A stretch of 64,000 nt of DNA. Origin: Apostichopus japonicus. Its lineage: Eukaryota > Echinodermata > Holothuroidea > Aspidochirotida > Stichopodidae. Below the pieces are notes generated by a model. The model did no database searches. It was not told where the DNA came from and worked only from the letters and a program-made list of their open reading frames with translations. Positions 4,747 through 28,079 of the stretch are shown in pieces (positions within the stretch are counted from its first letter, which is position 1; the number at the start of each line of letters is the position of its first letter). The stretch is from contig NC_092576.1 of NCBI RefSeq assembly GCF_037975245.1, forward strand, positions 6,368,001-6,432,000. The letters are read 5' to 3'. A program made the translations under genes and the position numbers.

Positions 4747-7700
4747 CTTCAAGGAGAGGGTAAAAAATGTTGAAAGATTATTATGCCGATTAAAATTACT
4801 TTGGTGGATGAGACAAGGAAACCAACTCTACGAACAGAACTACGAGTGATTTGAGTCTAATAATCGATTAAGAAATATAAAACTGTCCCATGCTGCCATA
4901 TTTAGAGGCTTCAAACAGTGTATTCTCTAAGCAGGAGAAAATAACAGGTAGAGTTCGAGTGTTTGATACATGACAGAGTATTCACTATATGATACTGCGA
5001 GGGGAGGGGTCTGTGCCCTAGACCCCCCAAATATATGTTTGTACCTCCCAAGAGAGTTGTCTGGGAAATGTTTTATCTCTTCTTGTTTTCTAAATAGGTT
5101 CAAGCAGTGCCCTGTCTGCCACCCCCCCCCTACAAAGGCATGATTCCCCAACACCCCAAAAAAAAGGGTAAAAAAGAAGTCCAGCTACACCCCTGGTGTC
5201 TTGGGATGAGTCGGGCAAGGGCATCTGTGCAGGATGAAGTCCTTTTTGGAAAAGTTATATACTCACTCCCCATCTTCTCTTTCTCAATCTGTGATTGTCA
5301 GTGGCATGTCAAGACTATTCTTAAACTGACCCTCAAGTCCCAATCCCTCCTCCCCCTCTCCCTTAGACCATCAATCATCTGATGCTTCTGACAGACTGCC
5401 AACTTGGGTAGGGCAAGTGTAACTAGGAGTCGCAAAGGCCAGCAAAGGACACCATAATTGGTCTGATTTTATCTTGAATACTTTGTTGTATACTTTTGTG
5501 AATAAACAAAATAACCCAAACTGTATACAGACAAGGTACCTAAATGTCAACACAAAAGGACTTTTTAACCCTTCCCCGCCACTTATGCCCTGCTCTCACA
5601 ACCATAGATACACCCTTGGTTCAACTCACGTCATGAATCACATAACGATCCTTTGAACTCAGGCTGGATGGAAACCTCCATGTTTTCCGTCCTGGATCTC
5701 CAACGAAATCTTTCAGATCCTGCTGGAACTGGCCGTGAATAATCTCGGTCTCCTTTGTCCTGTCTTCTGGTGGAAGTCTTGATTTATTCTGAGGCAGACC
5801 TGTCTGATGAGGCTTAGAAGCTAGCTTCTTAACCTTCACCTTTGACCCTGACCCTTTGACCCCTCCTTCCCCTTTGCTCTTTCTCTGAGCGGCTACATTT
5901 TGATTTGTGACCAGATGATCTGGGAGAGGATGGCTGGCAGAGATATCATCCACTTCTGTTTGGATAAAGTGTAAACAATTAGGTCAAGAAAACAAAATTA
6001 CTAAGAGGTAAGTAACAGACTGAGGAACAAAATCACACTATTTGAACAAAAAATTGTCAAGATATAATTTAATTCTTGGTGTTTCTTTTCCAAAAAAATA
6101 AAGTATAGTCAATTTTATGATATATATTTATTCTTTTTTTTTATTGGGGGGGGGGGAGGGGTAGAGGCGGTGTTTAATCTACTCATACATATCCTATTGC
6201 CATCCTTGCTGGGAAAATAGGTTAGCAATACATTCCTTGAATTTGAAAAAGCATATATGCATATAGGCACTAGCATTAGACAACACTAGTTCAAACTGTG
6301 GTAGGTCAAAAGTGAGGCAAATGCTTATCTAAGGTCAACAATTCATAATTTTAATATCTCAAGTTGTCTTTCAAATATTATAAATCAAATTCAAATGAAG
6401 TTACAACTTCAAAGCCATTCGGTCATTCCAAAATGCATATGCGGCTGCCTTGTGTCATAAAATTTCTGTTGCCTTGGTTATTAATGAGATGCAGTTTAAT
6501 AATATATTCTACCCCTCTCACCACATCTCTCATTGGTCCACAATTGTACTTGTATGTTAGCATAGTTGCCTGTACTTCTACTCACATGCTTAGAGTTGAA
6601 CATGTACTCATGTCATTTTCAAAACTAGATAGACATTAGTCCAAACTAGAGTACCTGCAATCACGCTTAGAGCCTTGTACTGGTAATAGTACTCATAATA
6701 ATGTGAAGCTATTTGTACTAATACTCATGGGGTTGCATTCATACTCATGAGTTGCACTCATACTGATGTGTTGCATTCATACTTGTGCAGTTGTACTCAT
6801 ACTAATGCTGATGCATTCATACTTGTGGGATTGTATTTATACTTGTGGGGTTGCATTCATACTAATGCAGTTGCGTTCATGCTCACAGGGTTGAAATCAT
6901 ACTCGTGGGGTCGTACTCGCACAACGATTCTGCGTCTTACCTTGTGTGTATTGAAACCCACTGTGGACTTCGCCGTGGTTATTCATATAAGTAACTAGGT
7001 CCTTTAAGAAAGGATGGTGGCTCACTGTCTGGGAATCACATACCAAACAGAGATGACGTCGGGCTCTTGTAACGGCTACATTCATCCTACGATCCTCCGC
7101 TAGGAATCCAACCTCTCCTAAAAAGAAGAACAAAAAGACCACCAGTTAAAGAGGATTTTGAAAACAATCACTGGCAAGAAAATCAATGTGCTGGTTAGCT
7201 CTCAGCATATAAATCCTCACCAACTGTTACAAATATCATCTTCAACTTTTACTTGTTCATAAAAAGTGGACTTACAATATTACATAACGCTATTTTTTAA
7301 ACCAACTCAACACCTCCCACCTCCCCTCCCCACAACCCCACTCCCTTTTTCTGTCTTTCTTCCTCTTTGTCACACTTGTAATTAAAATCTTTTCCTTGGA
7401 ATTAAATCCAATCTGTGATATTAGTTTTTTTAACAATGCACCCAAATGCCGACGTGACATCTGCAAGATATTTTGAGCAAGTCTACGGAGTAGGAATAGG
7501 AATCACACGTGAAGAACTTCTAGTGCACTTAAAATGACCGATGGAAAATAATGCTTGTTAATAGCTGAGGTAAGAAACGTGAGAATAGTAAAGTGCCCCT
7601 CCCGACCCCTTGCCCCACCCCCACACCATAATTCAAAATGTAGGATTATAAAGTGTTATGAAAAGTGAGTCACTTTTTCCTTGTGACAGACTTGTGATGT

Positions 7701-10700
7701 GTTTTTGTTTCAATCACTGACAAACTTCCATCCATACAACTGGATTGTTGACAGAGTAACCATGGCAACAAGGGCAACATTACCTCGACTGTTAGAACGG
7801 ACCAATGACATAACGACCGCCTCTTTCTCTCGTCCTTGGAATCCATCCACAGATTTTATCTCCACGCCTGGGTAAGTACCTGACACACGCTGCCTGAGAA
7901 GTTGCACCTGGATTGGGGATAATAATACAAAAAGGTTGGTTGTGACTTTAAAGCTAAATCATTAAACCTAACTCTTTAAACCTAAATCTTTAACTCTTAC
8001 CAATCATTGATAACAAGGTAAAATTTGACAGCAACTGCCGGGCCACTATGGTCAAGTTATTGTAGGTGTCCTAGTGACCACCATTAAACTTGTGTTCATT
8101 GATCGGACTTCTCATATTACGCTAAATGCCAAGCGTAGGAGAGAAACAAATTTATCTATAACTAACATTCTGTACATATGTTTCTCACATTGGAAAGAAA
8201 AAATTGCCTTGGTGTCTCTTCAAATTCCATTTTTGGTGTCAGGTACCTTAGCTATGAATTTGAACAGTAAACTTAATAGTGAATTTGTTATGGTTATTGT
8301 TGTTATTGTTATTTCTGATTTGCGAATATTTTGGTTCTCATTTTCTAATGGTTTCAAAACGGTTTCATTCACTAGGGTTGCATTGCAGCAATGAATGGGA
8401 TGTAGGGGGGTGGGGGGGGGGGGGGGGGTAATCTCCCGACGTATATGAAAAGTGGCCAGTCATTGAGGTACACTCTCGTCTGTCAGGTGGGGACACAGAT
8501 TGGTGGTCTCCAGAGTTGCAATCGATGGGACAATAAAACCTTTGTGATATCTCCCATCAAGTGGAATATGATTTGACTTCGCTGCTTAGGTCATGCCATT
8601 TACACCTATCCCATAGACCAATAATAATGGTTAGGTTTGTGTCTCCTTTAAGTTTTCTAGTATCATGACCGCAGATTTACCTGTAGGTTATAAGGTGTGA
8701 TGACAGCTATGTCTTCAGGCCTCACTCCTGACTCAATTAACCTCTCAATGTGTAACACCACCAAGTTTGCCTCACCTAAATAAATCAAACAGAGGGGTTA
8801 GGAAAACTTCCTTAAACTCAAAGCAACAAAGCTGTGTTTCCCTATTAAAGTCATTCAGTTACAAAGTTACAGTATCTTCCTTATGATACCTCAACAACAC
8901 CCCTCTCAACACCAATTCCACCCCTCTCTGCCCTTCCCACGATTTTTATTTTGGAGGGCTGAAAATTGGAGTAATTCTCGGTAGGTTTGGTAAAATTGCC
9001 GAAAACACACAAAAACAGCAGCTATAATGACAATAGTAACATCATCACAAATTTTACGAGTCATATTAGACTTGAACTATCTACTACTAATGAGAGAGGG
9101 CAACTTAAAGATATTTTTGACAGAAACAATATGGCATTTGTTATTTGTTTTAATATGCAATAGAATATCAGCATGGTAACGAGAAGCTGTTGAAATACAC
9201 ACGTTACTTATTAAAATCCATTTTGCTGTGAATCCTATTGTGGTGATTCCTATGTATTTGTGGTGATTCCTATGTATTTGTGGTGATTCCTATGTATATG
9301 TAGTGAATCATATGTATTTGTGGTGAATACTATGTATTTGTGGTAAAGTGTTTGTATTTAAGGTGAAACCCATGTCTTTGTGGTGAATCCTATATATTTG
9401 TGTTACATATGTTTGTACACTATAACTATATAATAAAGAGCCAATTCCCTACTTTCAGTCCATTACAATGTGCCTACAACATCTGTTACATGTATCTAAT
9501 TATATCAAGAATATATAAATATATACTAAAAACACAAAACTAGATTAAACTTCCTTTTAGGTCCTTAACCTACAATATCATATATTTTATATTTTGTTCT
9601 CTTTTTTGGCAGAATATTTTTCTATTTTTCAGACTTTGGTGTCCTACCTTCATTTCCTTTTGAAGCCTCCTCTTCCAGTTCCAATTCCGAGTAGCCACAC
9701 CCAACCGTATCAATTAAAAGCAAGGGTAACGAAGTTATGTCATTTTCTTCCACTCCTTTCAGATCACTGCGGAGAAAAAAAAAACATTATCAAAGTCCCA
9801 TAAGATTTACCTCCAAATTCAAATGTTATTTCATGATTATTTTCAAGGATTTGCTTCAACGAAAGATGCACCCTCGTGCAACTATTTATTATCACCTAAA
9901 ATGAACCCTGAGAGTGAATTCTCTCAACTAAATGCTTCAACTAAATTGTCTGGATATCCCTGGAAATGAGTGTCGAGGTGGATATCACCGGACATGTCCT
10001 CTATTTGCTATCTTACATGAGTAACAAGGTGGATTTGCAAAGAGATAAGATTTTAGGTATTAAAATACTGACTGAAATATGAAATAAGATACAGTGGAGA
10101 ATCGTTCTCAGTGGTGATTTAGCCATTTCAATTGGAATTATTGTTTTGACAGTATATGTAACATTGAGCTTTTAAATTCAAATCTTTATCATTTTCAAGT
10201 AGGAACCCCTTAAATTAATATTCCCCACAAGTGGGAAGGGGAATGTTCAACTTAGATTCCTTTCCCAGGCATCAACAAATTGCCCTCCTTTCATCAGCTA
10301 TAACATTGTAAACCTGTGGTTTCAATGCCCAGTATGTTCAAATGTAATATGTGTGTTGCGCGTGTATCCCGTAAACCTAGCCAGAACTAAGCCAGTATGT
10401 TCAAATGTGATATGTGTGTTGCGCGTGTATCCCGTAAACCTAGCCAGAACTAAGCCAGTATGTTCAAATGTGATATGTGTGTTGTGTGTGTATCATGTAA
10501 ACCAAAACAGAACTAAGCCAGTATGTTGGAATGTGATATGTGCTTGTGTGTGTACCACGTAAACATAGCCAGAACTAAGCCAGTATGTTCAAATGTGATA
10601 TGTGATTGTGTGTGCATCATGTAAACCTAGCCAGAACTAAGCCAGTATGTTCAAATGTGATATGTATGTTGTGTGTGTATCACGTAAACCTAGCCAGAAC

Positions 10701-13700
10701 TAAGCCAGTATGTTCAAATGTGATATTTGTGCTTGTGTGTGTATCACATAAACCAAGCCAGAACTATTAAAGCAAGTATATTCAAATGTGATATGTGTGT
10801 TGTGTGTGTATCACGTCAACTGACCTAGAACTATTTAAAGCCAGTATGTTCTACTGTGATATGAGTGTTGTATGTATATCACGTAATCCAACCCAGAACT
10901 AAGATAATTACACACTCAAATGCCATTGTAACCATGAAGCGGCTTATAACCAAGAACGGCCAAACTAACCTCAGTAGATGACTGGCGACGGATGAGTGCG
11001 CCCTCAACTTATCATCATACATCGCAGACGATGACCAGGACATGATGTCGCTGTGCATACGGTACTGAGTGGTCAACATTCTGACTACTTTATCGCCATG
11101 GAGATTTATGATTCTTTCCATCAAAGATATCGATAATCCATCTTTAGAAGCTCTAGAAATTTAAGAACACAAAGCTTGAATCAATATCACTATATATAAA
11201 AGTTTCTGTCTTGAAAGTGAAAACAAAATAAAATAAAACTTTTAGCAAACTGCTTATCCACTAGAGAGCCTTTATGTAAAAGAATGTGTAAAAATAAGTT
11301 GGCCTGACATTTCAATCCTAGCAGGATCTTTTTCAAAGACTAAATGACAAGTGTCTTGAAAGTGAGCGGGGAAGGGTGGAAGCGGGGGAGGGGTTGGTTG
11401 ATGGGACCTTGCTAAGATTTTCTCCCTCTTTCAACAATCATATCATGTGGTGTAATCTAATGCTGCAGAAGACTTCATAAAAAAACTTTGTTTTGTTTTA
11501 ACATGTCCCGAACGTGACAATTTAAAGATGGTTCTTACTTATCTGAAATAATTGTTGGAGGTAGCTGTTTGTGATCTCCTGCTAAGACACATTTCCTGGC
11601 CAGTCTTAAAGGGATCCAACATCCTGCTTCAACAGCCTGTAAATGTGAAATATAAAAATAAGACAAGCAATCATGTAACGTTTCCCCGTTGAGATACATA
11701 ATTACCCATCTCAGCACTTTCAAGGGATCTATTTCAGAATTGAACACGACACTCCGTCATAGAAAGTAATCTCTCATGAAATATATCTCAAAAAAAAAAA
11801 AGAACAGTGATCATGATGTCAGCAAACTTGAAGTCTGTCGCCTTCCAGAAATACTTCTACTTCCAAATCGACATTAGCTTTCTGCTTGTTGAAGGTAAGC
11901 CAAATGTTATAGGTTGATTATACGTTGATTATAGGTTGATCAACGTTCCCCTCAAGGGCTCCAAGCTTGTTTGACCCCTGTATGATCGTGTCAGAGGTAT
12001 TAACAGGGTCTGTACTCTAACCCTATGGTGCGCCTATTACAACCACTCATACACATTTCCAGTGAAGACAAGTCCATATCTTCCATTGGAGAGAAATGCT
12101 GTGAACACAGAGATGGGCTATCTTCAGACCATTCACAAACTTCAGTCCCTCCATGTAACTTATTATTCTTGGAACTAAAGCTTTCACAGGGAAAAACTTT
12201 ATATCCGGTATCGCATTGCGATATGTCTTGCGACAGCAGTCAAAGTACTATACAAGTTAAAAGATGTGCAGCAGTTATTTTGTAAAAAGGAAATATGGTC
12301 TTGTATGAGAAAAACTTTAGATCCTTCAACACAGCTACAAAAAATTGGACACAAAATAATTCCCTGTATTTTCCATTCTTGTACTATTACAAAAAGATTC
12401 GCTGCAAGTACTTTAGTTTCCATGGTAATGCAAAGGTTCAATTATTATGCCACAAATAAGTAGTTTCATCTTCTGCCACAATCATTATTCCCAAGTTCCA
12501 ATTTCAGTCTTGCATAAGCTGATATTTTTTTAACCAGACATTTCCTTAAAATGCTGTTAAACTGTAATTATTATGCAATACCTCATAATAGAAATGTCAA
12601 CAAACCTGTGCACATTCATCTACCACAGATAGATGAAAATGATCCCCGGGTAATAAGTGGACTGGTCCATCCCCTGATATACTCGTGTTGGTTGCCAAGA
12701 CAACATCGGCCTCTGATAGTATCATCCTGAGGGCCAGTTGTTCCCTTTCTCGCAACTCCTTCCTCAGATGTTTGATTTCATTCCAAGTACTTTTCCTGTC
12801 CTCACGTTGCTTAGACTTAGAAGCTTTCCCCTTCAAGAATAAATAATCAATATATTAACAGTGAGATCGTCCCTTTGAAAATATGTCCTTTGAACATTTT
12901 TGGTCAGAATGAGGCAATATAGATTGAAAATTTTCACTGCAATGCCAGCAGCTGAAAAAAATGTAAATTTTTGTTGTCAGAAAACAGTTTCTTCTAATGT
13001 TGAGCTACTATTTTGAGCTAATTTGAGCTTCTCTGAAAATTCAATGTGGTAAAAATGAATCACTTCATGTGAAGGTCAAATTCGGTGGCTATCAACAAAC
13101 TTTCCTGACGTGAGTCAAGTCTGATAATCAAGTCAATGTTATATCACTATGATGAAGAACACCACAAATCTATTAGTCTTTCCAATTTGGTGGACGAGTG
13201 ACTGCATAAAGGCTCATAAAACACTGCTGAGTAGGTCTACCATACTATAGTTGCTATGGGGATTTTCAAGACCATTGTTGCTATGTACTGACTGAGTGTA
13301 TGTATCTGCAGAGGGTAGTAGACTTGAAACTTGTTACAGCATATATATAGCTAATATGTGGTAGGCTACAAAGCCTTAGTTTTTAACTCTCTTTTTCTAA
13401 TATGCAGGTCCTTGTAGTTTTTTTTTCTTGTGTTCTTTTTCTGAAGCACAATGCTATGAAGCATTTATCCTCATTCTAATAGTCCTTTGCCTCGTCCTAA
13501 TGTAGCAAAGAAAGTGCCTGACTGTGCTGGAAGTCTTAGCATGCTAACTGAAGAAGTTTTTTGACTCATGAGTGGCTGAATATTTTGTAAAAGTTGGTAA
13601 TATTTAAAGAATGCATCTGGCAACAAAAGAGTTAGTGATATCTTCAGAGCACCTGAGCTGAGATTCTTACTTGTCTTTTCGTTTTTAAAGTGTAAAAAAT

Positions 13701-16700
13701 CATTTATTCCTTCAGGAATATAACATTAATTTAATATATTATAAATATATTATATGAGGAATATAATACTCTTACAAAAAAGAAGTTGTATATTGACGTA
13801 ATCTTAACACAGGCTAGTTGCTAGACTCAAGGACAAATGAACAAACAAATTGTTAGAGGTAAATTAAGCCTTTAGAAGAACACCTGCCATAATATTATCA
13901 CAGAGTACCTGAACTATGACCCATTTCCTAGAGTAAAAAACTTTTGTGTATGATAGAAATAGTTTACAATCAAACAAATATATCTAGAGAGAGGAACAAG
14001 ATATTGGAATGGGGTTTTCATCGAACAGTGTGAAATATCTTTCTCATTCTTACAAGTGTCACATATTATGCCACTTGAATATCTTGTTACCTAAACATGA
14101 CATCTCTTGGATTGGTTTGTAATGACATGCAAAGTTTACGACTAATCAAAAGAACTAACCAATGTCTTGTCGATATCCTTTCTGATATCTATAAGCAACT
14201 TCCCGGCATCACTGGCAGCCAGTCTTGCATCTAGCGAGAAGCGCTGGATTTCTGGCAGCAGGCGAGCTGGATGTCCGATACGGACCACGTTTATATCCTT
14301 ACTCCTACCCAGCCTTTCAATGAGATTGTCAACGGCAACATTAGACGGTGCGCAAGCTACGACCTGTAGAACGAAGGAACGAACAGACGATTGTTGAATT
14401 CCTTGTGTTTCTTCTTTCAAGTAGGACGGTGTTTCATTTAAGAAAGAATTTAGAGACAAACCGAAGCGTCAAACTATTAATACAAAGTAAGGCTTTAACA
14501 CTTGAATAGACGAGATTCAAAAATGAATCCGCTTGAATGTTTAAGTAATTTAATTGAAACCTTTCTTGATTGAAGTGGACTTAAAACTTATGTAGAATAT
14601 AAAGCATGTCAAGAAACATGAGCATTGTAGCAGGGGACCATCCCCTCCTCCCCACCCCCTGCCCCCATGGACCTTCCCCTAACCAATTAAAATACATTGT
14701 CAATAACTAAACCTGAAACTCACTACAATAAACTGTATAGTCATGCACTATATAAATTGCAATACAATACTGTAAGTTCACTGAACTTAATTAAAGGATA
14801 CTACATAAAATAAGACCACCCTGTACTATACTACACTGCAAAACACACTGTGATAATCTTTACTGTCCAACATTGTTCTGCATTATACTACACTGCACAG
14901 CACAGCACTACTTGCTACACTAAAATACCCTGCATTTAAATCTATGGGCGCATTACTGCAATGTTCTACACTAAACTACACTACACTACACAGCACTACA
15001 GTGTAGTACACTCAACTATGCTGCACTAACCTACACTGCACATCACTACAATGCTCTCAACTATGCTGCACTAACCTACACTGCACATCACTGCAATGCT
15101 CTCAACTATGCTGCACTAACCTACACTGCACATCACTGCAATGCTCTCAATTATGCTGCACTAACCTGCACTGCACAACACTGCAAGGTACTACACTTAA
15201 CTACCCTGCACTAACTTGCACTACATTAACCATACCAAACTGCACAACACTGCACTCATCTACACTGCACTACACTATACAGCACTGAAATACACAACAC
15301 TGTACTACACTACCCTACACAGCACCATACTACACAACACTGTCTTGCACTGTACTACACTACCCTACACTACATTTCACTACCCTACACTGAACTACAC
15401 AAGTAACACTGTACTCAACTACACTACCCTACAGTACATTTCACTACCCTACACTGAACTACACAAGTAACACTGTACTCAACTACACTACCCTACACTC
15501 CACTACAATGCACTGCATCTCCTATAACACATCCCTTTATTTCACATTACCTTTAAGCCTTGATGAACAGCTTGACGTATTACTTCTACAACCGTGGTTG
15601 TCTTACCGGTTCCTGGAGGACCATGAATGATCGCAATCTCTCGTTGTTGGAGAGCAAAGACCACAGCCTCTTGCTGAGATGCATCCAAGTCTGAATTGAA
15701 AAACTTTAAATCTGAAAACAATCAACAGAAACACAAAATTCATATATCCGACTCTTTCATAACCCTTTATTTTAACAAACGACCTCTGGAACAAACTTCC
15801 ATTCTCTACCAACCAGCTGAGCAGTTACGATATTAATTTTGGAAGATAACTTAACCACGTATCAGATTTTCTTGACCAACTGAAAAGTTGCTGCATTGCA
15901 GCACTGTTAAGCAGAGTCTCTTTGTCTGGATTTAGTATTTCTAGTTTGCAAGATTTTGGAATTTGGGGCTTTGTCCCTTTCTTTCAATTGTTTATACCAT
16001 GGATAAACTGCTGCAGTAACAATGAATGATTGGGAGGGGAGGAGGGGGTTGGAAGGGTCCTCCCTCAGTATTTAAGAAAGTGATGATGCTCGGGTACATT
16101 CTCAGTTGGATGGAGCTGTTTAGTCACAGTCCTGGGAGCAGGAATGGGTGTGACAATAACAGCCTTGTTATCCTTTGAACACTCAACGTAGAGAGTGAAG
16201 GTTAAGGGTATTAGCTGGTGTCCATTAACAATCATCACATGGATAGGGCTTCAAATTAGATTCTGTAGGCTTCATTCTCATAGCATTTTGTACCACAAAG
16301 ATAAACAACCCTTTTCAAATGTTGTGATATTCTATAAAGTCTGCACCTGGCAACAGCAGAATGAATGATGTCACCAGGACACTTTTCCAGCTGAATATGT
16401 CTTTTGTTTTTTGTTTTTCTTTGTAATCAATCATTTTATCCACAGAGGAAAAGAATATTTCTACAAAAAAAAAAAAGCTTTTGAATGGAAACAGTGACAG
16501 CTATAGGGGAACATTCCAAATGTATCAAGTCTCAAGGAAAAATCTACAAATAGATTATAATAATAGTCTATTAAGAAAATGCTTTTGTGAAGCATTTACC
16601 CAGATGATGACATAGACCCCCTGCTGTGATCCAACTGTCTGGAGTCATTGTAGGTTTAGCCAAAGTAAGATACATTCAATCAACCATATCTTGAGTTAGG

Positions 16701-19700
16701 AACAAGTTATTGAGACTGGGTAGGTTTTTTTTTTTTTTTTTTTTGGGGTAGTGTGGAATATATTTCTCTCTGAACAATGTATTGTTGTTTGCCACCAGAG
16801 GCCACCAGAGTATTCCTGTAAACATATTACTGATCTCAAAAAGGAACTTTGCAATTATTTGAAACATTTCTGCAATATTTACTGAAATGAAGTCTTTTTT
16901 CTTCCGTTTCTCCTCGATTTTTTCAATGATTTCCAATATTTTGATAAATAATTCTGACCTGATATGTCAAAGTTCAAAGGTGAACCCAAAGAGGCCTCTC
17001 CAAAGAGGACTTCCTGCAGGTGTGAACTGTGACTGTTGGTAGACTTGACCAAGTCATTTAATGCCCTGTTAAGGGAACAAAACATAAAAGTTGTGTTAAC
17101 CATGAAAAGTCTTTCAGTTCTGCCCTGCAAAACCAGAATTCAACATTTGTACAAAATAATGAAGTTAAAAGTACAAAAAATAGAAACTATTGGATTCATA
17201 GTTGGTTTTGAAGATTTGTCATGGACCATATCACAGACCACCTACCGTGTTCCAATTGCAGGGTGATAAAGGATTTACCTGGTAAACAAATTTACATTCA
17301 AACAACAACAATGACAGTCAGACAAAAAAGATAATGGGTTGGAGTCTTCAACTATTGTGTAAAATTTCCTCTCTAACACATATCTTTCACTTTGTCTATA
17401 TATATATATATATATATCCCTTAAAGTATTTTTTTTTAACTTTGTGTGGTAGTCTGAAAGTGTTCATCTGGTCAAGAAAAGTTTCACCTTCAAACAACCA
17501 TGTCTAACAGTTACAGGTAGGAACCAGATATATTAACAGCAGGCCTCAGAATTCAGGATATTTAATAGCTAAATTATGCCAGTGTATTTTTAAGTTGGCC
17601 AGTAGCAAAGAAAGTCACAAGATTTTTTTTGTTTGGGGGTGGCAGTAGACACTAAGAATATAAATATGATTTCAGTGGTTGTTACTATCAGCAAATACTA
17701 CTGACTGCTCCCATAATTGCCTGTGCAGCAGTGGCGTCACCAGACTTTTCAGTCTGGGGGGGCACAGGGGGAGCACCAGCATTTGATGGGGGGCACTTAG
17801 GTGGATACGGATTGCCGTCCTGGGGGGGTCTAAGGGGAGGGGGTGCCCCCCCTCCCCTTTAGAAAATTTTCGCATACGGAGGATGGGCTAGATGCAAAAT
17901 GGTGCCACATTTGATGCTAAATTCGATCTGAAGATATCTCCAGAAATTGCTATTTTTGAGGTAATGATTTTAACAACGCGCAGAATTTTGCAGAGGATAT
18001 GAACCACATGCTATCGATATTATGCCTAACCCTATCAATAGAACCTACATTTGTTGAATTAATTAACTCCTTTCTTGTCCTTCTCGTTTTCTCCCATCAT
18101 CTATTAAGATGTAACAGGTTCCAGCATCGTTATTGGCTCCTATCAGGGATCTCACCATGCAATCGAAAGTTTGATCACACATCGAGTATGGCTCACCTGT
18201 TGTGATGGCGCGGGTTACGACTTCGATACCCGACGGTCAAGGATAAACTTTTTCATTTTTTCGCAGCTCATTTGAAGAAAATACGAATTACTGTGCTTCT
18301 TTGTCCTTATGAAAAACCAACTCAGATGATGGGAGTTGAATATAACAAAATATATATATATTTTTTTTACCAACCCAAATCTCAAATGGGGGGGGGCACT
18401 CGGGGGGCACTAGGTTTTCCAGGGGGGCACATGCCCCCCTGGCCCCCCCTTGGCGACGCCACTGCTGTGCAGTAACTGATCAATGCTAGTTGCAGTTCAG
18501 GAAAATGCCAATGGGACATTGATTTTTTAGCCAGTAGCAGTTTTAAGCACCAGTTTGCTTTCTTTTTGAGAAAGAATTGGATTAAACCGTGAAATACTAG
18601 ACCTGTAAAGAGCATAAATTTCCGGAATATTCAGGTTTAACATGCATGCATGAATACACAAATATACATGAATATACATGAATATCCCTTTAAGAGATAA
18701 TCTTAAAGTCTGTCATCACTTATCATACAGATTTACAATCAATCAAGTTTTACAACCAACATGATATGAGTCACGATTCATCACCCAAATATCACCAAAG
18801 CTGGAATTATCCTTCAAAACACAAAACTAAGAGTGATATCAGAATCAATCAATGATAATAGCTAAATAATATCTTCACACATAAAGATTTCATCACGGTA
18901 GTAAAAATGGAAGGAGAACAGAAAAAGAATTTGGGGGGGCCAGAGTACGGCGTTGTGATTTCCACTATTTTAATGAGTTTTGAGTTATATGCTTAATGAC
19001 TGTAACAATCAAGTGTCTCATTTGAAAAATCAGTTTCTGAGTGAGTCATGCAACATTTCACTTAAATATCAGTTTTAATAAGTAGCAACCTTCAAATATC
19101 ACATTAAAAGGTACAGAGTACTTATTGAAACAGGTTGTTGTGTCTGGAATAAATTTACTGTGTGTGGAATTTTCAACACTTTTCACTTCAATAAGTCCGT
19201 TTACATTGTACAGTACTGTAATTCTACTAAAATTATCACAGCACGGTGATTTGATCTATCAGAAAAGCAAGCAGCAATGTGCACTTATGTACCTGAGCAT
19301 AAAGAAAAATGACAAGTGAAGGAGAAGGAGGAAAGGGAGGGGGAGGGAGAGGGTCAGGGAGAGGTTCAGGGAGAGGGTGAGTGGAGGGGAGGGGAGGGGA
19401 GGGGAGAGGGAAATGGTCAGTAGGTCAATAAATATCAGGCATGCTTTGGGGATGGTCAGGGTGCATCATTTAAATGTATCTAACATACTAAGTGAAGGCA
19501 GAGGGGAGGTGAAGTAGAAGGGTTTGGGAATGGGGGAATGGATGAAGGAATGACTGGCATACTGTACATGTATAAAGTTGCAGAGGATGTTCCATAGACC
19601 TTCTCCCTGCTAATACCCATCAGAGATCTTTAATTCTCACTTTACTGGCTGGTGACAGGGATCAGAGAAGGGATAGAAATCGGAGAAAGAGATGGTGGGG

Positions 19701-22700
19701 TGGGTTGAGGGGTTGGGTGGAGGGGAGGGTGGGTGTATGGAGGGTTTGGAAGCTTTGGGGGGAAGGTACAGGGTACCTGAAAACATTGTATTTCACAAAC
19801 TTGTCTCTGTGAATGTTCATCTTACTAGTTACCAAATTATCTTTCAATATTGCAAGCGTAGAACAAAGATACTTTCGGCAGGGGTGGAAGAGAGAGGTAC
19901 AGTATAGGGGAATGGAAATGGGTGGTGGGAGGGGGGTGGGCTGGGTACTAAAACTACAACATTGCTGACGGTGCTTGGCAAAAATTACCTCTGGCGATGC
20001 GCAACACACTACCAAATTATCAAATCACAAGCTCAAATCTAACAAAGATATAGATACTATTATGAGGGGGAGGGGGAGGGGGTTGAGGATGAGGGGATGG
20101 GTAAAATACCAGGAAAACCAGGAGTACCAGAGATTTCAGAAGTCCTTTTTTTTTTGTCTTAAAAATGTTCTCTGTGCCAATTTGTACCATGCTAAGTACC
20201 CAAACTACCGTATCTTGCACTGTAACAAAGAAAGCTACTAAACAATCACATACTCAGAGTGCCATTGTATTAAACTGTCAAGTGGATTTAACCAAGCCAG
20301 CAAACAGCTTGCAAATAGAACTGGCAGTAGATTATTCACAGGGTCTCCAGTGGTTACTTGTCTGAACCAATCAAAATCATTCATGACGTTTAAAGTCAGG
20401 GAAGATAAAAAATAGGAAAATTTGTAGTTATTTTTGTATCATATTTGAATGACATCTTGGTGGGAGGTTTTCAAGGAGATTCATTCATCAATTTATAAAG
20501 ATTAAGCAGGCACATGACTGATATGAACTAAATGATCATGTTACTTGTGACTTATGTGGCGAGGAACTGCATTGTGGGTACAACATTAAAGTGGAACATG
20601 GTGTAATCATTTCCATCATTTTTCATTTCCATACTGTTACAATATTTAAAAGACACACGATTACATCATTCTGTTTAAAAGCGAACATAGAAGTAAAAAA
20701 ACAATAAATAAACAAATTTCAAACGAAAAAAATACCATAATATAGAAACATTCTATCAAAATATTCCTTAATGCATATTTATGGTAATGTTTGGAGGGAA
20801 GGGGGAAGGGGGGTTGAACATCATAATTTACAAAGCTGACCAGCCTAATTGCTGGGAATATTATGTCAGAGTCAAATGTTAACTAATTAGTTTAGTGATA
20901 TCTACAGTACAACGTTTGTTTTGTGCAACAAAAAAAGAGGGTTACATTCATTATATGTGTAAGGTGTGAGCAAGATTTGGCTGGTTTAACAAAAGGCTGC
21001 CTAAACCTCTTGGAATTATAGTGACCTTTGTGAACGTAGGACACATCCCAGGCACACACCCAACAACTTTATGAGTTAATCTGCCTTGTAAATAGGGAGA
21101 TGTTTGCGAAACACTTTTTCGCATAAATTTGTCTATGTTTGGTCTGTGACAGTCTTTGATCACTTGACCTTTGGTGCTTTTCATAAATTAATGCACAATA
21201 GACATGTAGATTCTGATATCTTAATTTTGCAGGTTTTTGACCAATTTGGTCAGTTTGGTATATATATACAAGTAATGGCAAAAAATGCAGGACTTTTCAG
21301 GGATGGGGAGTGAGAGGGGTAATTTGAATTTTGACCTCTGACTTTTGAATGTTTGACATCTTAAGCCACAAAGGCACTACGTCCCATGCCCATACACACC
21401 ACACCCACCAAGTTTTGAAAGTTTGAAAGAAAATGAAGATTATAATAGCTCATCCACAGTACATTAATACATGTATCTGAGGTGAAAGAATTGAAATATA
21501 TTTACCTAGTTTATCTAGTTGACCAAATAAATGCATATAGCTCTGAGACTTATTCCCCTCCCCTCCCCCCCCCCTCCCCCCCCTCCCCCTCAATAAAGAA
21601 CCCTTAAATATGGAAAACTAGACTATGGTTGGTAGGATCACTAGAATGCTTTAATGGTGCGATCAGGTTGGTTTTGAGAAAGCTGATATCATGTTGGAAT
21701 GTTTATTGGCAGTTCACATTTGATGACATCCAATGTTGAACAATGTAATTGAGGGTTATTTATGCTAATGAAACCGAACCAGACCAGCACCGGTCTCGAT
21801 ATAATACCGCAGTTAGTAAGACGAGGTCAGTATTAAAGAAGAAATAATCATATTTATTGTTTGCTAATACTGGATTGGACACCATTGAAAAAACTTTAAA
21901 AAAAGAGGCAGATTGAATCATCTTTAATATTGGATCAATTGTTGCACCAACTTGACATACATGGGCAGTATCAGTATGGTTTGATAGTGCTCAATAATTT
22001 ATTATTCCGTAGTTCAGAACAAACAGATTATATTTATAGAGAACAGGGATACTTTTAGATATGTACTTTAGTTGAATTGACTTCAGAAATTGATATCATA
22101 TCGGAATGTCTATTGGTTACAGATTTAGAAACGTCAATGTTAAAAATGTAGTTTGGTGGTTAGAAATGATGAACTGCAACGAGACCAAACAATGGATAAA
22201 ATGTCACGGTTAGTAAGATGAGGCGAGTGTGAGAAGATATAATGCATATTCATTGCTTGTTATTGGAAACCAAGAAATGATGTATATTCATTGTTTGTTA
22301 TTGAAACCAAATTTCCTATGCCAATAACTCTCTAAACTGTACACCAATATCATGCTCTCAACACACTGGTATTGCCAGTACAAACAGTTCCTAACCTTGA
22401 TCTGATAGAAACATGATATTCATACTGCTTGTACTGACAATACGAGTGCTCTGAAGCGGGACATGACACTACAGTATAGAAAAAATTGTCCCAACTGGGT
22501 GCGGAAACCAACAAGAGGGTTTTTCTTGATAGAGAATTAGAGATAGCACCGTGACTGGAGTAAAGGATTCGACTCCCAAGTCAGGTTAGTCAGTGGCAAT
22601 GACCTCACTTGACTTCCGCTATGCAAGAACCCGACCAAACCACATTTCGCAAAATTTTGAAACCAGGACTAGCAAGTTTCACAGAGGGCTCCACTGCAAA

Positions 22701-25700
22701 GCAGCAATCTGGAGTTAGTCAAGAGAGTCTGGCCAGGATTCAAAGCAAGAACGTAACGATTGATGGATGGACAGGCTCCAACTGTTACATGACACCTTCA
22801 CTTACATTACGATCTATTCACAAGGAGATTCCACTCAGAAATCGATGCCAGGACAAAATTTGTCTTCCACAAAGTTTACATCGTTCACCCAGACAAGAAT
22901 TTCCTTAAACACAGCCTATGTGAGACTATACTCTACCTACCCTGTCAGCAGAATTAAGATTATGTACCATTTGGTTACACTATCTGAAATTGGCAGTTAG
23001 ATAAAACCCTTTACATGTATTTACTTTGAGAAGCAATCCTTTCAAGAACTGCCAATACATTTATGGCAGAAACAGAGATAATGTTATCTGCCACATTTTG
23101 CCAGGGGCTTAGGTCTTTTTATCAAACTTAACGACTAAGACCATTTTTGACAAAATTTATTACTGATGTCAAATGAAAAGTGTTTTGTGTGAGAGGTTGC
23201 TTATCAATCCATGAAAGTCACAAAAAAATGGGGGCAAAAAAGGTGAAATGATAACCGTGATAGAAACTGAAAGAATAGGTGATAAAAAGGCACATGATTT
23301 GGGGGGAGGTGAAAAGCAGCTAAAATTTGTCAAGTATTTATATTCAAAATGGCATCTGACAGTCTAATTAAATCTAAGTCTTCCGTAAAATATCCTGTAT
23401 ACCCATTTTCGTTTTAAAGTGACACACTTGGAAAAAATCTTTTTCAATGCAGAAATCAAAATTCTGTAAAACTGGAGTTTCTGAAAACTCTGAAACTGAA
23501 TGTATGTCACGTCTTTTGTTTAAGTTGTGTATCGGTAAAATCGTTTGACATTGCGTGACAGCATGTGACAGATACTTACCCCTTCACGGTCATTACTTGA
23601 TAACATCATTTGACAATTTTAGCAGCATGTCACACCTTTCTCTTAACGTGTTTATGGGCAACAACGTTTGACATTTGTGACAGCATGTGACACCTACCAC
23701 TTCAAATTCATTTTTAGGTAACATCATTTGACAATCTTAGCACCATGTCATACCTTTGTCTGAAGTTGTCTAGATGGGCAACATCATTTGACATTTGTGA
23801 CAGCAGTTCTAGGTAACATCATTTGGCAACTTCGTCATCACCTTTTTCTTTAATTGTTCTTAACTAACACCATTGTTTATCAGTAATGCCATTCGAGATT
23901 TGTGACAGGAAGATTATTTGACAGCTTTGAATATGCTAAACCAGGTAACAGCATTTGACGTTCATGATATCATGGGCCAACTATCTCCTAAGCCATATCT
24001 AGGTAACATTTGATATTTCGTGACATCTTTGTGGCACCAACCTCTTAAGTCATTTCTAAGTAACATTTGACATTCATGACACCTACCTCTTATCTCATTT
24101 CTAGGTAACATTTGACATTCCTGACAGCATGTGACACCTACCTCTTAAGTCTTTTATAGGAAACATTTGACCTTCGTGACATATACCTCTCATCTCATTT
24201 CTAGGTAACATTTGACCTTCGTGACACCTACAGTACCTCTTATCTCATTTTTAGGTAACAATTGACATTCGTGGCAGCACAGGACACCTACTGTAACTTA
24301 GAAGTCATTTCTAGGTAACATTTGACATTCATGACATCTACCTCTTATCTCATTTCTAGGTAACATTTGACATTCGTGACAGCATGTGACACCTACCTCT
24401 TAAGTCTTTTATAGGTAACATTTGACCTTTGTGACACCTACATCTCATCTCATTTCTAGGTATCATTTGACCTTCGTGACACCTACCTCTCATCTCATTT
24501 TTAGGTAACATTTGACATTCGTGACAGCATGTGACACCTACCTCTTAAGTCTTTTCTAGGTAACATTTGACCTTTGTGACACCTACATCTCATCTCATTT
24601 ATAGGTATCATTTGACCTTCGTGACACCTACCTCTCACCTCATTTTTAGGTAACATAGCATGTGACACCTACCTCTTAAGTCTTTTCTAGGTAACATTTT
24701 ACCTTTGTGACACCTACCTCTCATCTCATTTTTAGGTAACATTTGACATTCGTGACATCTTTGTGGCACCAACCTCTTAAGTCATTTCTAAGTAACATTT
24801 GACCTTTGTGACACCTACCTCTCACCTCATTTCTGGGTAACATTTGATAATTCGTGACAGCATGTGACACCTACCTCTTAAGTCTTTTGTAGGTAACATC
24901 GTTGGACAGCTTTACAAGCATGAAGACTTTGCCATCTTGTAGCTGTTCCTCCTGATGCTCCACAGCTATTATCACTTTGGTTGACCTGAGCTGCCACACC
25001 AGACCAGTGAGGAGTTGAGAGGCGGCCGACGGTGAGCCCACCGATGGATAAACACCAACGACATCTCCTGTAAAAGACATCAGAAAAACATCTTATAAAT
25101 TACGTATGATATTAAAAAATATTTTATATTCTGTCATCGTCAAAAATCAGGTCAAGTCATGAGAAAAATTATGCCATTATATCCAGCTGTTTGCAATCTT
25201 TATTCTTTCCATGAGAGTACTCCCTTTTTTATACCAAACTTGCCTGGACCACCTCAGTATTTTCCTGGGCCCCCTAATGACCCAAGGTACGAGGCTGTTG
25301 ACCCCTGAAACCCTTTTCCCCAGACTTGTCACTGAGTCGAAGGTGTATTTAAATATGCAACATATGTTAATTTAGAAACTATGTTAACATCCCTTAATCG
25401 TTTCCTTCCTTAATGCACAAAGCTCAAAGCACTGAAAATATGTTGACAATTCATTCTTTTAAAACAAAAGTAATATGTGCAGATACATCAGGTTAGTGTC
25501 TCGTACAGTGTCAACAGCATCGTTAGAGTCTGATCAGTTAGGTGTCTCGTACAATGTCAACAGTAACATTAGAGTCTGATCAGGTTAGTGTCTCCTACAA
25601 TGTCAACAATATCATTAGAGACTGATCAGTTGGAGCCATGTTGTTGAATCTTGTTCCAATATTAATACCTTCCTAGCAAATGTTACATACTGCAATTTGT

Positions 25701-27210: not shown

Positions 27211-27812
27211 GATACATGGATAGGCTGTCTTATGGGCTCTCAGATACATGGATAGGCTGTCTTATGGGCTCTCAGATACATGGATAGGCTGTCTTATGGG
27301 CTCTCAGATACATGGATAGGCTGTCTTATGGGTTCTCAGATACATGGATAGGCTGTCTTATGGGCTCTCAGATACATGGATACGCTGTCTTATGGGCTCT
27401 CAGATACATGGATAGGCTGTATTATGGGCTCTCAGATACATGGATAGGCTGTATTATGGGCTCTCATATACATGGATAGGCTGTCTTATGGGCTCTCAGA
27501 TACATGGATAGGCTGTCTTATGGGCTCTCAGATACATGGATAGGCTGTCTTATGGGCTCTCAGATACATGGATAGGCTGTCTTATGGGCTCTCAGATACA
27601 TGGATAGGCTGTCTTATGGGCCCTCAGATACATGGATAGGCTGTCTTATGGGCCCTCAGATACATGGATAGGCTGTCTTATGGGCTCTCAGATACATGGA
27701 TAGGCTGTCTTATGGGCTCTCAGATACATGGATAGGCTGTCTTATGGGCTCTCAGATACATGGATAGGCTGTCTTATGGGCTCTCAGATACATGGATAGG
27801 CTGTCTTATGGG
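27211..27812. repeat. 32-bp tandem repeat, ~19 copies
   Basis: The unit GATACATGGATAGGCTGTCT followed by TATGGGCTCTCA repeats at a strict 32-bp period with only scattered single-base variants (for example GTATTATGGG, GGCCCTCA). This homogeneity suggests recent expansion. Confidence 0.97.
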
Positions 27813-28079
27813 CACTCTGAGAGCAAGCAACTTAAAAAGAACGCCCTGCCATATCGGTCCCATCTAGTTCCGGGAAAAATCGACAAGCTGTAATGTAATA
27901 ATAGTACCAGAATCATCAGTGTTGCATGGTGTACCAAGTGCTGATCAAGAGAAGTATCAGTTCTTTCCTGGTAATTGAAGAAGAGATCTTTCGTGTACCT
28001 CTGAAGTTTCAAGACAGACTACAAGTTCTATGCACCTTAACTTGCGTTTTCTAACACATGGTTTTCATTAGGCGAAACT

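What the first reader, a model, noticed from the sequence alone, without database searches (positions are those of the whole stretch)
23540..24922. Tandem array made from an exon/intron junction: a field of copied splice donors beside IGHMBP2 exon 3
The last ~44 nt of exon 3 plus the first ~15 nt of intron 3, including the real 5' splice site GAG|GTAGGTGTC, is amplified about 18 times inside the same intron. At least ten copies keep the complete donor. The exon part encodes [10 protein letters not shown], conserved to human, so the exon is the source and not an exonised repeat. GCATG occurs on both sides of the junction (24860-24864 in the intron, 24918-24922 in the exon), 58 bp apart, which fits a first duplication by slippage or unequal exchange at microhomology. 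Copies farthest from the exon are most diverged yet still show exon-internal similarity. The nascent RNA would carry many authentic-looking U1 sites in tandem, which could act as decoys, allow alternative 3' ends of exon 3, or buffer donor mutations. I know of no named description of such a donor array.
Basis: partly seen in the sequence, partly recalled or inferred. Interest (0 to 1): 0.8.

Follow-up and report, generated by a model that had tools for sequence, protein, structure and literature searches.

The report
Minisatellite copied from an exon–intron junction
The end of one exon, together with its splice signal, has been copied about two dozen times into the neighbouring intron; such "mirage" repeats were known from amphioxus, and here they turn up repeatedly in what is probably a sea cucumber genome, mostly as harmless by-products.

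Summary
Exon 3 of an IGHMBP2/SMUBP2 gene (minus strand) ends at 24875. Its last ~47 nt plus ~11 nt of intron were tandemly duplicated and amplified inside intron 3. Of 22 aligned copied junctions, 19 keep GT and 9 keep GAG|GTAGGTGTC exactly. The exon is the source: its protein matches SMUBP-2, and 0 of 1000 shuffles reach the exon–array similarity. Genome searches found no related array elsewhere.

The kind has a name already: "mirage" minisatellites of amphioxus (PMC3087553). Human ABCA7 (PMC5954066) and IFI6 have donor arrays too.

New here is recurrence in this genome (probably Apostichopus japonicus). Of 195 sampled exon 3' edges, 16 have a significant copy downstream, against 4 of 193 acceptor edges upstream (p = 0.0098). 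11 of 195 include exon sequence; 4 of 195 head arrays with at least three donors as strong as the real one.

A function is not supported: donor columns are not significantly more conserved, and every tested exon extension meets an immediate stop. Best reading: a tolerated mutational by-product.

The parts
24875..25068 (-). Exon 3 of the IGHMBP2/SMUBP2 gene; its last ~47 nt are the exon part of the founder unit
   Evidence: PDB 4b3g match E 5.9e-4; exon limits and frame into exon 4
24873..24874 (-). Authentic donor GT of intron 3 (AAGAG|GTAGGTGTC)
24860..24922 (-). Founder junction unit (58 bp) bounded by GCATG at 24860-24864 and 24918-24922
   Evidence: used as the query
23990..24859 (-). Proximal block: mostly 45- and 55-bp units; the 9 exact donor copies and 8 further GT-keeping copies lie here
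24305..24757 (-). 145-bp higher-order repeat, 3.2 copies, 91% matches
23520..23989 (-). Distal, degenerate block with 57-60-bp units that keep deeper exon similarity (23579, 23639, 23697, 23757) and one copy at 23984
17066..24874 (-). Intron 3, 7809 nt; the array sits at its 5' end

Best explanation
It is a 'mirage' minisatellite: a tandem repeat founded on an exon–intron boundary. Shown: the unit is the end of exon 3 plus the start of intron 3; the copies lie downstream of the authentic donor in the same intron; they share changes that the exon lacks, as expected of one founder; growth included multi-unit steps (145-bp higher-order repeat) and a 10-bp length change between two GTCAC repeats. 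Inferred: one 58-bp tandem duplication at the GCATG microhomology began it. It was tolerated because the authentic donor is transcribed first and lies at the proper distance from the exon 3 acceptor, so the duplicate is spliced out as intron. Slippage or unequal exchange then amplified it. The array is most likely a near-neutral passenger; an occasional use of a copied donor would lengthen exon 3 and add an immediate stop, making a decay target.
For: Junction similarity far above shuffles; 22 aligned junction copies; shared derived columns, 22 of 22 at -15 and 21 of 21 at -30; no related array elsewhere; donor columns not more conserved than others, entropy 0.49 against 0.54, p = 0.92; 19 of 19 tested extensions stop at once; the same kind of copy recurs at 11 of 195 sampled donors, and donor-side copies are about as frequent as in mid-intron (11 against 17 and 13 of 140) while acceptor-side copies are fewer (3 of 140); amphioxus mirages are reported not to disturb regular splicing (PMC3087553); in ABCA7 one-unit retention is about 2% and independent of array length (PMC5954066).
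Against: No RNA data and no related species could be examined, so both use of the first donor and neutrality are inferred. In two other arrays donor columns have lower entropy than the rest, though not significantly (L032 0.05 against 0.30, p = 0.07; L091 0.17 against 0.36, p = 0.24). Three B-type copies are 35 of 36 identical to the exon core, which could also mean later gene conversion or a second seeding. Match of columns to the source is higher in donor columns (0.90 against 0.75), p = 0.54.
Confidence: 0.85

Rival explanations
1. The array is a selected regulator: tandem U1 sites act as decoys, or switch between full-length mRNA and a decay isoform, and so tune IGHMBP2 level.
For: 12 donor-grade sites in 1334 nt against 1 in 6400 nt of the rest of the intron, the exact copies as strong as the real donor. 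IFI6 uses two downstream repeat units as donors (a sentence in PMC4526556). Donor columns lean towards lower entropy in two other arrays (not significant).
Against: Donor columns of this array are no more conserved than others. Similar arrays sit in unrelated dynein and myosin genes, as expected of a mutational process.
Confidence: 0.07
2. The direction is reversed: an older intronic repeat overwrote the end of exon 3 by gene conversion.
For: Three copies are 35 of 36 identical to the exon core, so exchange between exon end and array is possible.
Against: The exon end encodes [10 protein letters not shown], matching KLANDVTYRR of SMUBP-2; array units read a stop or other codon in place of the Tyr codon (column -15 differs in 22 of 22 copies).
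Confidence: 0.03
3. It is an early stage of intron or exon gain by tandem duplication: copied junctions are raw material for a new exon or a shifted boundary.
For: Proposed for mirages (PMC3087553); tandem genomic duplication is an accepted route of intron gain (PMC3443670).
Against: Here an existing intron is lengthened; the copies lie in frames with immediate stops, and I did not search systematically for acceptors inside the units.
Confidence: 0.04
4. It is an ordinary satellite that by chance resembles the exon end.
For: This genome is rich in intronic minisatellites, and three other introns of this gene start with arrays close to the donor that show no junction similarity.
Against: 0 of 1000 shuffles and 0 of 1687 other 48-mers reach the score; no dispersed copies found.
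Confidence: 0.01

Closest known systems
'Mirage' minisatellites of amphioxus: Adh3 (Canestro et al. 2002, seen only as a citation), globins BflGb6 and BflGb9 (PMC3087553, passages read)
   [quoted passage not shown] both boundaries can be involved.
   Different: Described from cephalochordates; here a different phylum if the species inference holds. Unit 45-60 bp against 150-160 bp in the globins and 10-72 bp in Adh3. Splicing and polymorphism were tested there, not here.
ABCA7 intron 18 VNTR, human (PMC5954066, passages read)
   Same: A tandem repeat begins with the authentic donor, so each unit carries a donor; use of the next unit's donor gives a premature stop.
   Different: 25-bp unit that begins at GT, with no exon part according to the paper; highly length-variable and linked to disease.
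IFI6 (6-16, G1P3) minisatellite, human (Turri et al. 1995, seen only as a reference; one sentence in PMC4526556)
   Same: A minisatellite provides several donor sites at an exon end.
   Different: There, downstream units are used and give isoforms; here any tested use gives an immediate stop.
Internal tandem repeats at exon–intron boundaries of human duplicated genes (PMC2812944, abstract and passages); introns from tandem arrays (Zhuo 2007, seen only as a reference)
   Same: Tandem repeats at boundaries that can alter splicing.
   Different: Those form new introns out of exonic repeats; here an existing intron is lengthened.

Membership tests
Mirage minisatellite | Tandem repeats that span an exon–intron boundary | tested here: met
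   Unit = ~47 nt of exon 3 plus ~11 nt of intron 3; 22 aligned junction copies; 0 of 1000 shuffles
Mirage minisatellite | Copies lie beside the authentic boundary | tested here: met
   Array starts directly downstream of the exon 3 donor; no related array found elsewhere
Mirage minisatellite | Many, not all, copies keep splice signals | tested here: met
   19 of 22 keep GT, 9 of 22 exact
Mirage minisatellite | Short unit with concerted turnover | tested here: met
   45-60-bp units, 145-bp higher-order repeat, near-identical blocks at offsets 145, 255, 400 and 732
Mirage minisatellite | Regular splicing undisturbed | not testable with these tools
   No RNA data
Mirage minisatellite | Length or somatic instability | not testable with these tools
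   Only one assembly
IFI6-type donor array giving coding isoforms | Downstream donors give alternative coding products | tested here: not met
   19 of 19 tested extensions stop directly after KRLKR
ABCA7-type VNTR | Each unit carries a donor; use of the next one causes a premature stop | tested here: met
   actual use not testable. The unit differs by its exon part
Dispersed satellite | Related units elsewhere in the genome | tested here: not met
   9 of 9 and 7 of 7 DNA matches in the locus; 5 of 5 exact pattern matches in the locus, 5 of 12 matches elsewhere with 2 mismatches, at the level of the 6 control matches

The most novel reading that the evidence does not exclude
In this genome (probably a sea cucumber) 5' splice sites are recurrent founders of minisatellites: about 2% of sampled donors (4 of 195; 95% interval 0.6-5.2%) head arrays with three or more equally strong donor copies, while acceptors are largely spared. 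Splicing order (the first donor transcribed wins) makes the donor side a permissive nursery for tandem repeats. The genome would then hold very many natural donor-competition experiments and a steady source of intron lengthening, and mirages would be a general or convergent deuterostome feature, not a peculiarity of amphioxus.
Probability: 0.45. Interest if true: 0.6.

Novelty: new member of a known kind. Interest (0 to 1): 0.45.

Why it matters
A pre-mRNA with one real donor and about ten equally strong copies must still be spliced at the first. Such arrays test exon definition against 'first donor transcribed wins' without engineering. If mirages are common outside amphioxus, they are an overlooked route by which introns grow and cryptic donors arise. 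They predict an asymmetry (donor side tolerated, acceptor side purged) that annotation and RNA-seq can test directly. They also warn gene predictors, because the array reads as repeated exon ends with good donors.

Tried and rejected
Junction origin of the other donor-adjacent arrays of this gene was not supported: junction -20..+20 of introns 5, 9, 10 and 13 is reached by 727, 81, 668 and 322 of 1000 shuffles. Selection on donors: none significant. Rfam at gathering thresholds on 23400-25100: 0 matches. Unit tree: low resolution, short units; the exon groups with two distal copies at support 0.775.

Sorting by eye of the 11 donor-side hits: 8 include exon sequence (L053, L032, L091, L082, L127, L120, L054, L111), 3 do not (L121 and L076 intronic, L050 a CTCTCC repeat). 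L127's copy lost its donor; L054, L120 and L111 are diverged. Of the 5 dynein donor hits, I count C23, C14 and C10:6259092 as including exon sequence; C10:6256576 is intronic and C3 is a GACA-type repeat. C10:6259092 is diverged with its donor changed, and C14 shares only ~14 exon nt with gaps. Acceptor side with exon sequence: L080, L049, C3; L125 is weak. By eye 11 of 195 against 3 of 193 gives p = 0.053, weaker than the automatic comparison. Mid-intron controls had shorter targets (about 420 against 520 nt). Several tests were made without correction, and exons of one gene are not independent. One search had the minus-strand dynein loci wrongly reversed (5434 conflicts); found and redone; nothing is used.

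Full report
What is there. On the minus strand the window carries an IGHMBP2/SMUBP2 gene. Exon 3 (25068..24875, 194 nt) aligns end to end with SMUBP-2 of the PDB (4b3g, E 5.9e-4); that the chain is human is recalled. It ends ...[12 protein letters not shown] with the donor AAGAG|GTAGGTGTC, GT at 24874-24873. Exon 4 starts at 17065 and continues the frame as ...[14 protein letters not shown]...EVLFG. Intron 3 is 7809 nt and the array sits at its very start.

Anatomy. The 63-nt junction as a single query gives 26 hits including itself. 22 array junctions plus the source were aligned: 9 of 22 carry exactly GAG|GTAGGTGTC, 19 of 22 keep GT. Proximal units are mostly 45 or 55 bp; the 10-bp difference lies between two GTCAC repeats. 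Distal units are 57-60 bp and keep deeper exon similarity, one of them over 43 nt without a gap. A 145-bp higher-order repeat at 24305-24757 and near-identical blocks at offsets 145, 255, 400 and 732 show growth by several units at a time. GCATG at 24860-24864 and 24918-24922 bounds the 58-bp founder.

More than chance? Yes. The exon-only 48-mer scores 24 against the array; 1000 dinucleotide shuffles have mean 10.7 and maximum 17; 0 of 1687 other minus-strand 48-mers reach it. The innermost 23 exon bases alone are not significant (61 of 1000 shuffles distal, 448 of 1000 proximal), so the deep-exon claim rests on the longer alignments. The copies share changes against the exon (22 of 22 at column -15, 21 of 21 at -30), which fits one founder. 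Three copies are 35 of 36 identical to the exon core; gene conversion is possible.

Unique to the locus? 9 of 9 and 7 of 7 DNA matches lie in the array or its source. Of 12 pattern matches with up to 2 mismatches, 7 lie in the locus, among them all 5 exact ones; 5 others (C3, C11) have 2 mismatches, at the level of the 6 control matches. The tool warns that absence is not proof.

Donor strength and consequences. By a weight table recalled from memory, 12 sites in 1334 nt of array are at least as good as the real donor, against 1 in 6400 nt of the remaining intron; U1 duplex energies of the 9 exact copies equal the real one, -12.3. Reading past the real donor meets TAG at once: 19 of 19 tested extensions stop after KRLKR. 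Donor columns are not more conserved than other unit columns (entropy 0.49 against 0.54, p = 0.92; match to source 0.90 against 0.75, p = 0.54). In two other arrays donor columns are lower in entropy, not significantly (p = 0.07 and 0.24). So there is no clear sign of selection for donor use, and no RNA evidence either way.

How general? Exon edges were sampled without regard to repeats: dynein (PF08393, 56 of 85 matches), myosin (PF00063, 67 of 67) and kinesin (PF00225, 73 of 119). An 80-nt piece centred on the edge was compared with about 520 nt beyond it, with 200 shuffles each. Significant copies: donor side 11 of 140, acceptor side 3 of 140, mid-intron 17 and 13 of 140; dynein 5 of 55 and 1 of 53. 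Pooled, 16 of 195 against 4 of 193, Fisher p = 0.0098; for the 140 alone p = 0.051. By eye, 11 of 195 donor-side copies include exon sequence against 3 of 193 on the acceptor side, p = 0.053. Clear donor arrays: a dynein exon on C23 (66 bp x 14.9, exon end ...VGYPIKPDE followed by GTGAGA, 9 donors as strong as the real one in 1021 nt) and three exons of one myosin locus on C4 (L032 10, L091 5, L082 3 such donors). That is 4 of 195 (2.1%, interval 0.6-5.2%), but in only 2 of 62 exon clusters, so the events are not independent. L053, with a perfect 80 of 80 copy 220 bp downstream, looks like a newborn case. Edges come from profile matches, not from annotation.

Reading. Donor-side copies are about as frequent as mid-intron ones (p = 0.32 and 0.83) and acceptor-side ones fewer (3 against 13 of 140, p = 0.018). 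The simplest account is tolerance: a duplication across a donor leaves the authentic donor first in the transcript, so the copy is intron; a duplication across an acceptor puts a false acceptor first. This order argument is inference.

Known or new? [quoted passage not shown] It says that both boundaries can be involved, that results suggest no interference with regular splicing, and that length and somatic instability occur. PMC5954066 (passages) describes the ABCA7 VNTR that starts with the exon 18 donor; its two frameshift isoforms are given as 14 and 2%, the second by order being one-unit retention, not affected by VNTR size. IFI6 was seen as the title of Turri 1995 in reference lists and one sentence in PMC4526556. 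So the array is a new member of the mirage kind.

Species. G000 has 671,581,487 bases in 35 contigs, with C23 of 18,203,763 and C16 of 46,036,110. The Apostichopus japonicus assembly is 671.60 Mb with 34 scaffolds and 23 chromosomes of 18.21-46.02 Mb (PMC10344927, passages). The match is close but no name was given; this is inference.

Verdict. Observation and origin confirmed, function unsupported, kind already named. The recurrence and donor bias in this genome are the part worth following.

Noticed in passing
window 14951-15507, 10329-10903, 6721-6911 (introns 5, 9 and 13 of the same gene): Three more minisatellites start about 43, 66 and 29 nt downstream of donors at 15550, 10969 and 6940, without significant junction similarity.
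   Followed up: partly
window 23540-24875, + strand: On the strand opposite to the gene the array shows TAGGTAAC 14 times, a zero-length-exon-like motif; probably meaningless antisense.
   Followed up: no
window 27211-27817: Very uniform 32-bp x 19 array, 98% matches, presumably young.
   Followed up: no
L080 (C19:15108373-15109651): Acceptor-side counterpart: a stretch with acceptor and exon start is repeated upstream of a myosin exon, 78 points of 80; mirage at a 3' boundary or duplicated exon.
   Followed up: partly
C4:23.97-24.00 Mb (L032, L091, L082): One myosin locus carries three separate donor arrays, suggesting gene-level clustering.
   Followed up: partly
G000, myosin and kinesin exon matches: Short exon matches are reported in open frames of up to 1109 aa, perhaps stop-free tandem arrays that run from exons into introns.
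   Followed up: no
C11:19253030-19253515: Four matches to CTTAACAGGGAGGTGTCAC, three of them spaced 76 bp: an unrelated array seen only through the pattern search.
   Followed up: no
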